Of a DNA stretch of 64,000 nt, positions 39,309 to 47,815 are shown in pieces (position 1 is the first letter of the stretch; every line of letters starts with the position of its first letter). The stretch lies in assembly GCA_027923965.1 (NCBI GenBank), contig AP026969.1, forward strand, positions 3,348,001 to 3,412,000, read 5' to 3'. Under the pieces are notes generated by a model. That model made no database searches. It worked only from the letters and a program-made list of their open reading frames with translations, and was not told the origin of the DNA. The DNA is from Comamonadaceae bacterium OS-1. Its GTDB lineage: Bacteria > Pseudomonadota > Gammaproteobacteria > Burkholderiales > Burkholderiaceae_C. The translations under genes were made by a program, and so were the position numbers.

Positions 39309-39671
39309 ATGACAGTCTCTTTCCAACGTATCGCTGCCATCGCCCTGGTCGCTCTGGCCACCGGCCCCCTGTTCACCGCCTCCAGCATGGCAGCGACCGA
39401 CGCGGTGGTGGTGGCCAGCGCCGCCAGCACCAGCGCCTCCGCCAATGGCGACAAGGCCCTGGCTTCTGCGGTGGCCAACGCCATCAGCCAGTCCATGGGC
39501 AGCCAGGTGAAGAACGTGGCAGTCTCCAGCAACGACGGCACCGTCACCCTCAGCGGCTGGATCACCGGCCCCGACCAGGAATCCCAGGTCCGCCACATCG
39601 CGGCCAACGTGCCCGGCACCACCCGGGTCTACAGCCGCCTGCGCACCTGGTCCAGCGAAACCATTCACTGA
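39309..39671 (+). CDS. Secreted BON-domain protein, paralogue 1
   Basis: 120 residues. A signal peptide ending SSMAA is followed by one BON domain (KNVAVSSNDGTVTLSGWITG and VPGTTRVYSRLRTW). BON domains bind membranes or phospholipids and occur in envelope-stress proteins such as OsmY. A clear paralogue follows 72 bases downstream, so this is a tandem duplication. AAGGAA precedes the ATG. Confidence 0.82.
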   Translation: MTVSFQRIAAIALVALATGPLFTASSMAATDAVVVASAASTSASANGDKALASAVANAISQSMGSQVKNVAVSSNDGTVTLSGWITGPDQESQVRHIAANVPGTTRVYSRLRTWSSETIH

Positions 39672-39743
39672 TAGCCTACAGACTGCTTGCCCCCGGCGGG
39701 CAGATTGCCTAAGCTGTTTTTATTTCTACCCCCAGGAGCCGCC

Positions 39744-40067
39744 ATGCACAGCCCTCTCAGCCGCCCATTGACCCGACTTGCCGCCAGCGCCGTGCTGGCC
39801 TTGGCCGCAGGCCCCCTGATGGTGGTGCCCAGCATTGCCTCCACCAGCGACGAGGCTTTGCAGAGCGCAGCCCTGCAGGCCGTGCAGCAATCGCTGGGCT
39901 ACCAGGGCAAAAACATCACGGTCACGGCAGAAAACGGCACGCTGGTGCTGCACGGCTGGGTCCATGGCGCGCGCCAGGTATCCCAGGCCCGCACCGTGGC
40001 CAGTACGGTTCCCGGTGCCACCGACGTGTACAGCCACCTGCGCGTTTGGTCGACGTTTGCCGAATAG
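39744..40067 (+). CDS. Secreted BON-domain protein, paralogue 2
   Basis: 107 residues, signal peptide to about residue 30, then a BON domain aligned with its upstream paralogue (KNITVTAENGTLVLHGWVHG and VPGATDVYSHLRVW). CCCAGGAG lies before the ATG. The two differ at most positions outside the core, so the duplication is not recent. A nested hairpin follows its stop. Confidence 0.8.
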   Translation: MHSPLSRPLTRLAASAVLALAAGPLMVVPSIASTSDEALQSAALQAVQQSLGYQGKNITVTAENGTLVLHGWVHGARQVSQARTVASTVPGATDVYSHLRVWSTFAE

Positions 40068-44866: not shown

Positions 44867-47815
44867 CTAAAAGCCCCGCAAATCGTCCACCGGTTGAAGC
44901 AGCTTGCCGCCCAGCACCACCTGCAGCGTGCGGGTGATGGCATCGATGTTGTTGTCGAAGCTGCCGTGGTCGGCGGGGATCATCACGTTGCTGGGGTCGT
45001 CGCGGCGCGGGTCGGCCAGGGCGGTGCAGACTTTGTCGGTGGTGACTTCCACCAGTCGGCCCGCGCTCTTGAGCTTGGCGTCTTGCACCGCGCGCCGCCA
45101 GACGTTCAGGCTCTCGTTGGTACTGGAGCTACCGTCCCAGCCGCCATCGCCCGTGCCATAGACCTTGGCCATGCCCGCGATGGGGGTGCGCAGGTCGGTT
45201 TCCAGCGCGCCCGACACCAAGTACAGCAGCGATTTGCGGTAGATGCCCGCCACGCTATCGGCACGCTCCCGGGCATCGGACAGCATCGACAGGTACAGCC
45301 GCTCCATGACCTGCTTGTTGCTGGCGTAGCACTGGTTGGCAAAGGCCACACTGCAAGCGGGTGCGTACAGGTGGATGGAGTTGATCTTTTCGATCGGCAC
45401 TTTGCGGTAGGCCAGGCCGTTCAGCATGTGGCCCAGAATGATCGAGCCCGCCGAGTGGCCCACCAGGTGGATTTCCAGCTGGTCGCCCCAGGTGTCCATG
45501 AGCTGCTGCAGGGCGCGGATGATTTGCTCGCCGCCACGCCGGGTTTCAAATGCCAGCGCGGCCACGTCTTTCATCTGCGTCCAGACCGGGCGCACCAGGC
45601 TGCGGCCAATGCTGGACTCGACGGCCAGGTCGGTTTTTTCGGTCACCGCCTCGGCCAGCTCGTCAAACCAGCCGCCCGCCATGCCCGGCGCCTCGCGGCT
45701 TTGCTTGTGCAGAATGCCGCTGATGGATTCCAGCAGGCCGGTCTTCCAGACCAGAAACAACGGGTAGCAGCCATTGGCCTCGAAATGCCGCCCCATGGCG
45801 CGGGCCCGCTTGATGGCATCGGCCTCGCTGTTGAGGCCGCCGTGGGCGTAGATGACGATGCGCTTCTTGCCGTCCAGCGGGCCGTGGGCCGGGTCGCGGA
45901 ACCAGGCATTGGGCAGCTCGCACACCTGGTGGGCCAAGGTGCGGCTAAGCCCGTCTTCGGTCAGATAGTGGCCCACGCGGCCATCGTCGCCCAGCACCAC
46001 GCTGTGCTGGTAGGCCTGGTCGGCACTCCACCACAGGCCGGTGTTGACCGCCCCGGCCCGGGCGTGCGCGCCGTCGGAGGCGGTGACGCTGATGCGCCCT
46101 TCCACCACGCCGGGCACGCCTAGCGCCACCACCCAGGCATCCATGCCATTGGCCAGCCAGTCGGCATAGCCCAGCACGGCAAAACCGCCCATGCCGAACT
46201 GGGTGCCCCAGGAGTTCTGCACGATGAAGCCCTGGGCATTGAAGCCCACCAGCGCAAACGCATGGCCTCCGCCTTCGGCCGGGCGGCCATCGAAGGCGAT
46301 CAGCGGAAGATCCTTGTGCCCGCTGGGGACCGATGGGATGGTCGGTAGGTTGTGCCAACCGTCATGGGTCAGGGCCGACACATACACCGCGCCCACGGCC
46401 TGGATGGCGGCCTGCAGGTCGGTGATGGATTGCAGGGCGATGCGGTAGTACACGCCCAGGGTCTGGTCGGTGGCGTTCTTGGCGAAGCCGTAGCGGGGTT
46501 GCGGCGCATCTTTGCGCCAGTAGTCGTCCAGGCACACGCCATGGTTGAACCAGCCTTTGAGCGCGCCCCGGCAGCTGGAGCCGCTGTAGTCTTCGCCCGC
46601 ATATTCGTCGTAGCGGCGGGCGTAGCTGTAGAGCATGCGCGGGCTGACGGAATCGATCTTGCTTTTGTCGGCGGCCTTGTACCAGCGCAGGTAGTTGACC
46701 ACGCAGGCCAGGCCGTAGCCGGTGCAGGCGCCTTCATTGCCCTGGTCCAGGATCAGCCCGGCGGCGGTGTAGGCGGCCAGGTATTTTTTGATGTCGGCAT
46801 CGCTGGGGTAGGCCCCCTGCAGGCCCAGCGGCGGCGGCAGGTAGGCGCGGTCGTTCAGGTCGATGGGGTCTTTGCGCACCTTGAGCTGGCGCTCGGCTCC
46901 GAGCCTGGGGGGCACGGCGGCCGGGGTCGCCTTGCCCCCCTTGGCCGACTTGGAGGCACCTGCACCCACATTCCGGGCCGGAGCCGCTTTGCCCACCAGC
47001 GGCTCGGCCCGCGCAAAAACATCCTTGAATCGGTCCAGCCCGTGTGCGCCGCCGTTGACCAGCTTGCGCGCCGCCGCCAGGTTGCCGGTGGCCAGCGCGG
47101 CCCGGATAGGCTCGGCCTTGTCGGCCAGAAACCGGGCCAGCAACAGGGCGGCGATCTCCGGGGCGTTGGCCAGATCGGCATTGGCGGCCTGCGCCACGCC
47201 CAGGTCGATGCCCAGGGCATTGCCATAGCGGCTGTAGTTGTCGCGCCCGGTCAGTTGCACAAAGCCACGCCCTTTGAAACGGGCTCCATCGCCCGCCTGG
47301 GTATTGCCCACGCGCCTGCCCGGCCCGGTGCCCGGTTCGTACAGGCCAAACGGCATGCCGCCGGGCGCGGTATTGAACTGCGACTGGAATTCAGAAATCG
47401 GCAAAAAACCCTCGGTCTCGGCGCGGATGCTGCCCAGAGCGGCGCAGACCATGGGCCAGTCGGTCAGGTCCAGCGCATCCAGCGCGGCGGCCACGTAGGG
47501 CAGGTAGCGGGCGATGTTGGCGGGCTTGGTGGCCGGGAACAACTGCCGCACCAGCTCCAGGGTCAGCGGTACTTTGAAACGGGGCGCCGGGCGCAGCGCC
47601 AGCAGTTGCAGGCAATACGGCCCCACCACCCCATCGGCCACCAGCCCCACACCCGACTGCCAGCGCCGGGCGGCGGCCTCTACATCCACCGTCATCTCGT
47701 CGCCCAGATCCAGACCCGGAAAGGCCTGGGCATCCGCGCCCAGTTCATTGAACAAGGCGGTACGCAGTTTTTGCACTGCCGGGCCTTGGCTGCCCCGCAC
47801 CAAAAGTGTGTCCAT
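44867..47815 (-). CDS. Multi-domain hydrolase: GH19-like lysozyme, papain-like protease, lipase-like domain
   Basis: 982 residues from ATG 47815, after GAGGAG. No signal peptide or membrane helix. Residues 1-75 resemble a peptidoglycan-binding domain (RGSQGPAVQKLRTALF). Residues ~85-275 resemble GH19 chitinase/endolysin: IRAETEGF with candidate catalytic Glu133/135, and GRGFVQLTGRDNY (182-194). A linker rich in Ala, Gly and Lys (276-320) follows. Residues ~330-570 look like a C1 peptidase: Cys364 in DQGNEGACTGYG, His518 in GGGHAFALVGF, Asn534 in VQNSWG. Residues ~650-960 look like an alpha/beta hydrolase: HGG (658-660), Ser788 in GHSAG, His950 candidate. The role is unknown; no immunity gene or secretion system is adjacent. 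Confidence 0.88.
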   Translation of the reverse strand: MDTLLVRGSQGPAVQKLRTALFNELGADAQAFPGLDLGDEMTVDVEAAARRWQSGVGLVADGVVGPYCLQLLALRPAPRFKVPLTLELVRQLFPATKPANIARYLPYVAAALDALDLTDWPMVCAALGSIRAETEGFLPISEFQSQFNTAPGGMPFGLYEPGTGPGRRVGNTQAGDGARFKGRGFVQLTGRDNYSRYGNALGIDLGVAQAANADLANAPEIAALLLARFLADKAEPIRAALATGNLAAARKLVNGGAHGLDRFKDVFARAEPLVGKAAPARNVGAGASKSAKGGKATPAAVPPRLGAERQLKVRKDPIDLNDRAYLPPPLGLQGAYPSDADIKKYLAAYTAAGLILDQGNEGACTGYGLACVVNYLRWYKAADKSKIDSVSPRMLYSYARRYDEYAGEDYSGSSCRGALKGWFNHGVCLDDYWRKDAPQPRYGFAKNATDQTLGVYYRIALQSITDLQAAIQAVGAVYVSALTHDGWHNLPTIPSVPSGHKDLPLIAFDGRPAEGGGHAFALVGFNAQGFIVQNSWGTQFGMGGFAVLGYADWLANGMDAWVVALGVPGVVEGRISVTASDGAHARAGAVNTGLWWSADQAYQHSVVLGDDGRVGHYLTEDGLSRTLAHQVCELPNAWFRDPAHGPLDGKKRIVIYAHGGLNSEADAIKRARAMGRHFEANGCYPLFLVWKTGLLESISGILHKQSREAPGMAGGWFDELAEAVTEKTDLAVESSIGRSLVRPVWTQMKDVAALAFETRRGGEQIIRALQQLMDTWGDQLEIHLVGHSAGSIILGHMLNGLAYRKVPIEKINSIHLYAPACSVAFANQCYASNKQVMERLYLSMLSDARERADSVAGIYRKSLLYLVSGALETDLRTPIAGMAKVYGTGDGGWDGSSSTNESLNVWRRAVQDAKLKSAGRLVEVTTDKVCTALADPRRDDPSNVMIPADHGSFDNNIDAITRTLQVVLGGKLLQPVDDLRGF

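What the first reader, a model, noticed from the sequence alone, without database searches (positions are those of the whole stretch)
44867..47815. Single protein combining GH19-like lysozyme, papain-like protease and lipase-like hydrolase
One 982-residue chain carries a peptidoglycan-binding start, GRGFVQLTGRDNY lysozyme motif, a C1 Cys/His/Asn set (Cys364, His518, Asn534) and a GHSAG serine hydrolase (Ser788). This combination attacks wall, protein and ester/lipid and is not a domain order I know. It has no signal peptide. It could be a bacteriocin-like or type VI effector, a predation enzyme, or a phage-derived lysin that gained domains. This is my best candidate for an undescribed system.
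Basis: partly seen in the sequence, partly recalled or inferred. Interest (0 to 1): 0.75.

Follow-up and report, generated by a model that had tools for sequence, protein, structure and literature searches.

The report
Three-in-one wall, protein, ester hydrolase
A soil and freshwater bacterium encodes one large protein that carries a cell-wall cutter, a papain-like protease and a lipase-like enzyme; relatives in other Proteobacteria rebuild the same kind of trio from different parts, which suggests a little-studied class of enzymes for taking bacterial cells apart.

Summary
The minus-strand gene (window 44867-47815, 982 aa) joins a peptidoglycan-binding start, a GH19 endolysin-type lysozyme, a papain-fold C1 protease and a GHSAG alpha/beta hydrolase (ABH). 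The recognisable catalytic residues are invariant in 48 of 48 aligned relatives (45 distinct). No row has a hydrophobic N-terminus.

It is a chromosomal gene of Beta- and Gammaproteobacteria. No phage or plasmid record matched over 80% of its length. A type VI marker is in 16 of 34 carrier genomes; no neighbour family recurs widely.

The surprise is the wider family. On an ABH tree, supported branches force five switches between a core without a wall enzyme and fused forms, each to a different partner: PGBD+GH19, another GH19, a GH24-like lysozyme, N-acetylmuramidase, and Amidase_2 with a caspase domain instead of papain. Six of 25 unfused cores lie beside wall-hydrolase or PGBD genes. A caspase gene precedes the window-type gene in one genome; a GDSL-lipase/caspase/M15 protein follows a C1-ABH gene in another.

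Most likely this is a modular tri-hydrolase lysin held in the cytosol, probably for self-lysis; delivery to other cells is not excluded. A metacaspase-amidase-lipase protein was noted in 2012; this papain/GH19/ABH branch is a new variant.

The parts
44867..47815 (-). whole coding sequence, 982 aa plus stop
   Evidence: dN/dS 0.075 against L003
47591..47815 (-). peptidoglycan-binding-like N-terminal domain, residues 1-75
   Evidence: PG_binding_1 in relatives L057, L079 and L152; profile hit to 1lbu
46991..47572 (-). GH19 endolysin-type lysozyme domain, residues 82-275
   Evidence: phrog_181 E 4e-27; 4ok7
47417..47419 (-). probable GH19 catalytic Glu133 (RAETEGF)
   Evidence: 48 of 48 relatives; role by family knowledge
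46883..46990 (-). Ala/Lys-rich linker, residues 276-311
   Evidence: pLDDT below 50 over 278-313; highest dN/dS of the regions
46106..46882 (-). papain-fold C1 cysteine protease domain, residues 312-570
   Evidence: 3ois; Foldseek to papain/cathepsins, best E 2.5e-7
46742..46744 (-). C1 oxyanion Gln358
   Evidence: 48 of 48 and 27 of 27
46724..46726 (-). C1 nucleophile Cys364
   Evidence: 48 of 48 and 27 of 27
46262..46264 (-). C1 His518
   Evidence: 48 of 48 and 27 of 27
46214..46216 (-). C1 Asn534
   Evidence: 48 of 48 and 27 of 27
44870..46042 (-). alpha/beta serine hydrolase region, residues 592-982
   Evidence: weak DUF900; model pTM 0.82; weak cutinase/esterase matches
45836..45844 (-). 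HGG motif, His658-Gly659-Gly660
   Evidence: 48 of 48; oxyanion role inferred
45452..45454 (-). ABH nucleophile Ser788 (GHSAG)
   Evidence: 48 of 48 and 27 of 27
44966..44968 (-). probable ABH catalytic His950 (HGSFD)
   Evidence: 48 of 48 and 27 of 27; role inferred
44870..44887 (-). conserved C-terminal tail DDLRGF
   Evidence: DDLxG[FY] in 49 of 49 rows including the window

Best explanation
The gene encodes a modular 'tri-hydrolase' lysin: a peptidoglycan hydrolase (here PGBD+GH19, cutting glycan strands), a papain-like cysteine protease and an alpha/beta ester hydrolase on one chain. It is made without an export signal and so stays harmless in the cytosol, away from the wall. When the cell is committed to lysis (damage, infection or starvation; trigger unknown), the ester hydrolase attacks membrane lipid or other esters, the wall enzyme reaches the sacculus, and the protease degrades or activates proteins, perhaps by cutting the poorly conserved linker at 276-311. 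Shown: architecture, intact conserved active sites, no hydrophobic N-terminal segment, repeated pairing of the same core with different peptidoglycan hydrolases, papain exchanged for caspase in one branch, caspase genes beside it in two genomes. Inferred: enzymatic activities, substrates, use on the cell's own envelope rather than a victim's, and any trigger.
For: Catalytic residues invariant. No hydrophobic N-terminus in 49 of 49 rows. ABH tree: the core-only label needs 5 changes, all forced by well-supported branches, to PGBD+GH19 (12 sampled rows; 49), GH24-like (3 rows), a second GH19 (1 row; E 1.5e-9), Muramidase (1 row; E 2.5e-61) and Amidase_2+ABH+caspase (4 rows). Unfused cores beside peptidoglycan-hydrolase or PGBD genes in 6 of 25 loci: L098 Amidase_2 16 bp upstream, L095/L099/L100 PGBD, L096 M15, L087 CHAP+PGBD. 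Caspase links: in G275 a caspase gene directly upstream of the window-type gene; in G654 one protein with GDSL lipase, caspase and M15, 21 bp after a C1-ABH gene. Precedent: metacaspase+Amidase_2, once with GDSL lipase, linked by its authors to autolysis and cell death (PMC3501461, passages). No immunity-like neighbour recurs: the widest neighbour cluster spans 10 of 69 loci and looks like a response regulator.
Against: No trigger, regulator or sensor domain was found; five proteins of the family and its neighbours gave no hit in PADLOC. Neighbours in the window (cytochromes c, M20-type amidohydrolase, named by eye) suggest nothing. The ABH target is unproven, its fold match is weak and its catalytic acid is not assigned (D847, E850 or D853). 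Two of the five fusion types rest on one genome each, the caspase neighbours on one genome each; 19 of 25 core-only loci showed no peptidoglycan-hydrolase neighbour, though the family tally shown was cut at 25 of 151 families. The eCIS neighbourhood in P. fluorescens PS833 points rather to use against other cells.
Confidence: 0.42

Rival explanations
1. An antibacterial or predation weapon delivered to other cells, by an injection device such as eCIS or by release from lysed sister cells; the three enzymes attack the victim's envelope.
For: In P. fluorescens PS833 the gene lies 641 bp from, and divergent to, a sheath-like gene (named by eye) of an eCIS locus that also holds PF14065, T4_baseplate and eCIS_core genes. 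In Luteibacter and Dyella PF14065 lies about 16 and 21 kb away. PF14065 is in 11 of 22 carriers tested against 50 of 399 in the order draw. An eCIS_core gene follows a C1-ABH gene in L103. Predicted eCIS toxins include 68 with a peptidoglycan-binding domain (PMC11297309, passage).
Against: Within the order draw the association is not significant: 7 of 35 core carriers, own genome included, against 43 of 364 others, p = 0.18. In the other 8 positive genomes the two genes lie on different contigs; so do those of 4 of the 5 further positive carriers, and in the fifth they are about 1.2 Mb apart. The window's genome and 10 others of the 22 lack PF14065. No recurrent immunity-like neighbour; no eCIS_core domain in the protein.
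Confidence: 0.3
2. A type VI or Xanthomonadales-type IV secretion effector.
For: PGBD+lysozyme proteins without signal peptide are typical of such effectors (recalled); the window's genome has TssC.
Against: TssC in 16 of 34 distinct GH19-type carriers; absent from the single-contig genome G005 with a 97% identical gene. Some carriers are incomplete drafts, so 16 is a lower bound. XVIPCD in 1 of 22 genomes and not in the protein. No VgrG, Hcp or PAAR family among the 25 of 110 neighbour families shown.
Confidence: 0.06
3. A phage endolysin captured by the host that gained two domains, now a relic or prophage gene.
For: The lysozyme part is closest to phage endolysins.
Against: No relative in the viral contigs scan; 36 phage records match, none over 80% of the query, and the 20 listed match only in the lysozyme part. 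No phage genes recognised by eye next to it in the window; purifying selection.
Confidence: 0.04
4. A housekeeping or scavenging enzyme for recycling envelope debris or storage material in the cytosol.
For: Solitary chromosomal gene, conserved, in many free-living species; no recurrent partner.
Against: A lysozyme with a wall-binding domain has no intact wall to cut in the cytosol; repeated pairing with endolysin-type enzymes and caspases is odd for recycling.
Confidence: 0.18

Closest known systems
Metacaspase + Amidase_2 (+ GDSL lipase) proteins of Polaromonas, Nitrosococcus, Chitinophaga, Desulfobacterium (PMC3501461, passages read)
   Same: Protease and peptidoglycan hydrolase, and in Chitinophaga a lipase, on one chain. 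L153-L156 carry a caspase, the ABH core of the window protein and (by Pfam in three of four) Amidase_2.
   Different: Window protein has papain instead of caspase and GH19 instead of amidase; the passages seen mention no ABH core and no papain-type proteins. Whether the named species' proteins hold the ABH core was not tested.
GH19 endolysins (SPN1S, 4ok7; PHROG 181)
   Same: Same lysozyme family.
   Different: Not in a phage; fused to protease and hydrolase; holin genes were not searched for.
Xylellain (3ois) and short bacterial C1A peptidases
   Same: Closest solved C1 relative by sequence; Q-C-H-N set.
   Different: The 3ois chain is a 291-aa cysteine protease without the other domains.
Mycobacteriophage LysA/LysB pair (recalled)
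   Same: Wall hydrolase working with an alpha/beta esterase.
   Different: Two proteins, mycobacterial target; no homology tested.
eCIS-associated toxins (PMC8213781, PMC11297309, passages)
   Same: Some are peptidoglycan hydrolases, peptidases or alpha/beta hydrolases.
   Different: Most carriers tested show no eCIS linkage; no eCIS_core domain in the window protein.

Membership tests
C1 papain-like peptidase | Gln-Cys-His-Asn catalytic set | tested here: met
   Q358, C364, H518, N534
C1 papain-like peptidase | papain fold | tested here: met
   Foldseek TMt 0.52-0.78 to cathepsins, papain and kin in the 50 hits shown
GH19 lysozyme/endolysin | homology and conserved catalytic Glu | tested here: met
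GH19 lysozyme/endolysin | muramidase activity | not testable with these tools
   needs assay
alpha/beta hydrolase | GxSxG serine and late His | tested here: met
   S788, H950 invariant
alpha/beta hydrolase | fold and catalytic acid | tested here: inconclusive
   DUF900 below cut-off; domain model matches cutinases and esterases at E 0.003-0.03, mixed with unrelated folds, none at E <= 0.001; acid not assigned
type VI secretion effector | T6SS present in carriers | tested here: not met
   16 of 34 distinct carriers
X-T4SS effector | C-terminal XVIPCD | tested here: not met
   absent from the protein; 1 of 22 genomes
eCIS cargo | gene within an eCIS locus or eCIS_core domain | tested here: inconclusive
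   adjacent in one genome, PF14065 at 16-21 kb in two, unlinked in the other positives
phage endolysin | encoded in phage or prophage | tested here: not met
   prophage context judged by eye only
metacaspase-amidase-lipase proteins | caspase domain and Amidase_2 | tested here: not met
   window protein has neither; shares the ABH core with L153-L156

The most novel reading that the evidence does not exclude
Proteobacteria carry an undescribed class of executioner lysins built from three interchangeable slots (ester hydrolase; papain- or caspase-fold protease; any of several peptidoglycan hydrolases) that dismantle a cell from within, a single-protein programmed-lysis machine that needs no phage holin because its own esterase opens the membrane.
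Probability: 0.3. Interest if true: 0.85.

Novelty: new variant of a known kind. Interest (0 to 1): 0.62.

Why it matters
If the three activities work together, this is a self-contained bacterial demolition enzyme that links caspase- and papain-type proteases to wall and ester breakdown. The repeated exchange of parts around one core gives a direct way to test what prokaryotic caspases and papain-like proteases do in cell death, and the family is a source of natural multi-enzyme lysins.

Tried and rejected
Conserved operon partner: neighbour clustering over 582 neighbours in 69 loci gave at most 10 loci per cluster; an earlier, cruder caller gave at most 6. Type VI and X-T4SS were tested and rejected as a general rule. 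eCIS was the strongest delivery lead but is not significant in the order draw and mostly unlinked. In one search I had counted the own genome as a non-carrier (p = 0.17); one search corrects this (p = 0.18). Phage or plasmid origin: viral scan without relatives; phages (36 records, 20 listed) and plasmids (33 records, 20 listed) match parts only. Anti-phage defence models: no hit for five proteins. Promoter and terminator scans: nothing above shuffles. DNA repeats in the locus: judged chance-like, no test. Pfam tallies of neighbours show only the 25 commonest of 151 and 110 families, so absence there is not proof. Gene calls in unannotated loci are my own codon-usage calls, so gaps and starts are approximate. 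No PDB match for the GH24-like domain. Rows dropped: fragments L009, L015, L018, L074, L075, L082 from the counts; these, plus L001 (the window's own copy), L017 and L089 from the core tree; L038 from the ABH tree; L151 was not put in a tree. Fold search in the viral library was never accepted and the VIA-align library was absent.
Full report
What is there. The gene lies on the minus strand, 44867..47815, and encodes 982 aa. The lysozyme part matches endolysin profiles (phrog_181, E 4e-27, residues 82-296) and the solved SPN1S endolysin; the middle matches xylellain 3ois; the C-terminal part has a sub-threshold DUF900 alpha/beta hydrolase match. Pfam reports nothing above cut-off for the window protein itself. 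An AlphaFold model from 40 aligned sequences has mean pLDDT 75 and pTM 0.49: the domains are usable, their mutual placement is not. Foldseek puts the C1 domain on papain and cathepsins (all 50 hits shown are of that fold). A second model of residues 594-982 has pTM 0.82 but finds only weak matches, cutinases and esterases at E 0.003-0.03 among some unrelated folds and none at E <= 0.001; the hydrolase is therefore divergent, and the fold is supported rather than proven.

It is conserved. Within the genus 7 of 8 genomes, the window's own included, hold a full-length gene; the one miss is 73% complete. A scan of genome contigs gave 45 loci, of which the 40 loci L040-L079 are of the window type (L074 and L075 partial), in Comamonadaceae, Sphaerotilaceae, Rhodocyclaceae, Rhodanobacteraceae, Pseudomonadaceae and others. 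I aligned 48 full-length relatives, of which 45 are distinct. E133, Q358, C364, H518, N534, H658, S788 and H950 are invariant in all 48. In 27 relatives without this GH19 domain (three of them the Geminicoccaceae proteins below) Q358, C364, H518, N534, S788 and H950 are 27 of 27 and H658 26 of 27. For the acid of the hydrolase, E850 and D853 are invariant in both sets, D847 is 46 of 48 and 25 of 27. dN/dS is 0.075 against L003, 0.14 against L004 and 0.38 against L005, and highest in the linker each time. No row has a hydrophobic stretch in its first 60 residues (49 of 49).

The wider family. The C1-ABH core without lysozyme is common in Burkholderiales and occurs in Alphaproteobacteria. A tree of the core (79 rows) puts all 49 PGBD-GH19 rows in one group with support 100 and the three Geminicoccaceae rows, which carry a different, GH24-like lysozyme domain, in another (the GH24-like assignment rests on a sub-threshold Phage_lysozyme hit in L080, E 0.004, and phrog_7 in L081, E 7e-6). 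A phylum-wide search (398 genomes, 14 with a match, own genome included) added two further fusions, a GH19 without PGBD (L146; E 1.5e-9) and an N-acetylmuramidase (L147; E 2.5e-61), and two proteins, L153 and L154, which like L155 and L156 from the order draw carry the ABH domain and a caspase domain (four of four, E <= 7e-20) and Amidase_2 (three of four, E <= 7e-10; in L155 by eye only). A search with L156 in 300 genomes of the order found full-length relatives in G145 itself, G080 and G305; the other 33 genomes with a match hold partial ones. On an ABH tree of 53 rows (12 GH19 rows sampled) the core-only label needs five changes and well-supported branches force all five. Since each change leads to a different partner, I read them as about five separate joinings with peptidoglycan hydrolases; one old GH19 fusion lost elsewhere is possible for the two GH19 branches but less economical. 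In one branch the protease is a caspase instead of papain. The muramidase and second-GH19 branches are one genome each, and the root is by midpoint.

Neighbours. Among 25 core-only loci examined, six have a peptidoglycan-hydrolase or PGBD gene within two genes: L098 (Amidase_2, 16 bp upstream), L095/L099/L100 (PGBD gene, one genus), L096 (M15), L087 (CHAP+PGBD, divergent). PG_binding_1 is the commonest family among the 91 neighbours scanned (4 members); among 101 neighbours of 28 fused loci no such family is in the 25 of 110 shown. Caspase-fold genes recur: in G275, the first branch of the window's own family in the midpoint-rooted tree, a 269-aa caspase gene (E 3e-26) lies immediately upstream on the same strand; in G654 a single protein with GDSL lipase, caspase and M15 peptidase starts 21 bp after a C1-ABH gene; CHAT domains match 3 of the 101 neighbours of fused loci, one of them identified as a gene downstream of L054. 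A 2012 survey (PMC3501461; passages only) reports four metacaspase proteins with Amidase_2, one of them also with a GDSL lipase, and links them to autolysis and cell death. The window protein is therefore a papain/GH19/ABH variant of a theme glimpsed before but not described in this form in what my ten paper searches showed (open-access papers, mostly with all terms required).

Delivery. Type VI: TssC in 2 of 12 carriers and 16 of 26; after removing two genomes counted twice and two of another architecture, 16 of 34; drafts may hide more. XVIPCD: 1 of 22. eCIS marker PF14065: 11 of 22 carriers, 50 of 399 in the order draw; in that draw 7 of 35 core carriers against 43 of 364 others, p = 0.18. 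In P. fluorescens PS833 the gene is next to a sheath-like gene of an eCIS locus, in Luteibacter and Dyella PF14065 lies 16 and 21 kb away; in the other positive carriers the two genes are on different contigs or, in G159, about 1.2 Mb apart. I read this as an open lead, not a rule. The window's own genome has TssC and no PF14065.

Mechanism. I favour a cytosolic lysin that acts on the cell's own envelope: no export signal, no recurrent immunity-like neighbour, a solitary conserved gene, repeated company of endolysin-type enzymes and caspases. The ester hydrolase could open the membrane in place of a holin; this step is pure inference. Release onto neighbours, or eCIS delivery, would use the same chemistry and is the main rival.

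Novelty and limits. The parts are known; the combination and the slot-like exchange were not found in the papers I could search. Gene calls are mine, genome draws are samples, and no activity has been measured.

Noticed in passing
L079 / G429:C6:38581-44423: In P. fluorescens PS833 the full-length gene lies 641 bp from, and divergent to, a sheath-like gene of an eCIS locus with an eCIS_core (DUF4157) protein.
   Followed up: partly
L103:4832-5911: An eCIS_core (DUF4157) gene follows a C1-ABH gene on the same strand; the genome's PF14065 gene is on another contig.
   Followed up: no
G225:C1:3553036-3554994: A caspase-domain match lies within about 700 bases of a PF14065 (Pvc16_N) gene.
   Followed up: no
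L089:5193-6905 and L149:4933-6714: Two C1-ABH genes have an animal-type haem peroxidase gene directly upstream on the same strand.
   Followed up: no
L155:9826-11688 and L156:9595-11520: Both caspase-type genes are followed on the same strand by genes of 620 and 641 aa that look alike by eye and have no Pfam hit; possible partners.
   Followed up: no
window 44870-44887: The extreme C-terminus DDLxG[FY] is conserved in 49 of 49 fused rows, and many core-only relatives also end in an aromatic residue; possible docking or self-inhibition tail.
   Followed up: partly
L151:2811-6194: One 1128-aa protein combines GDSL lipase, caspase and M15 peptidase, right after a C1-ABH gene.
   Followed up: partly
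window 39309-40067: Two tandem small secreted proteins of similar sequence, BON-like by eye (recalled), beside a response regulator and a sensor kinase.
   Followed up: no
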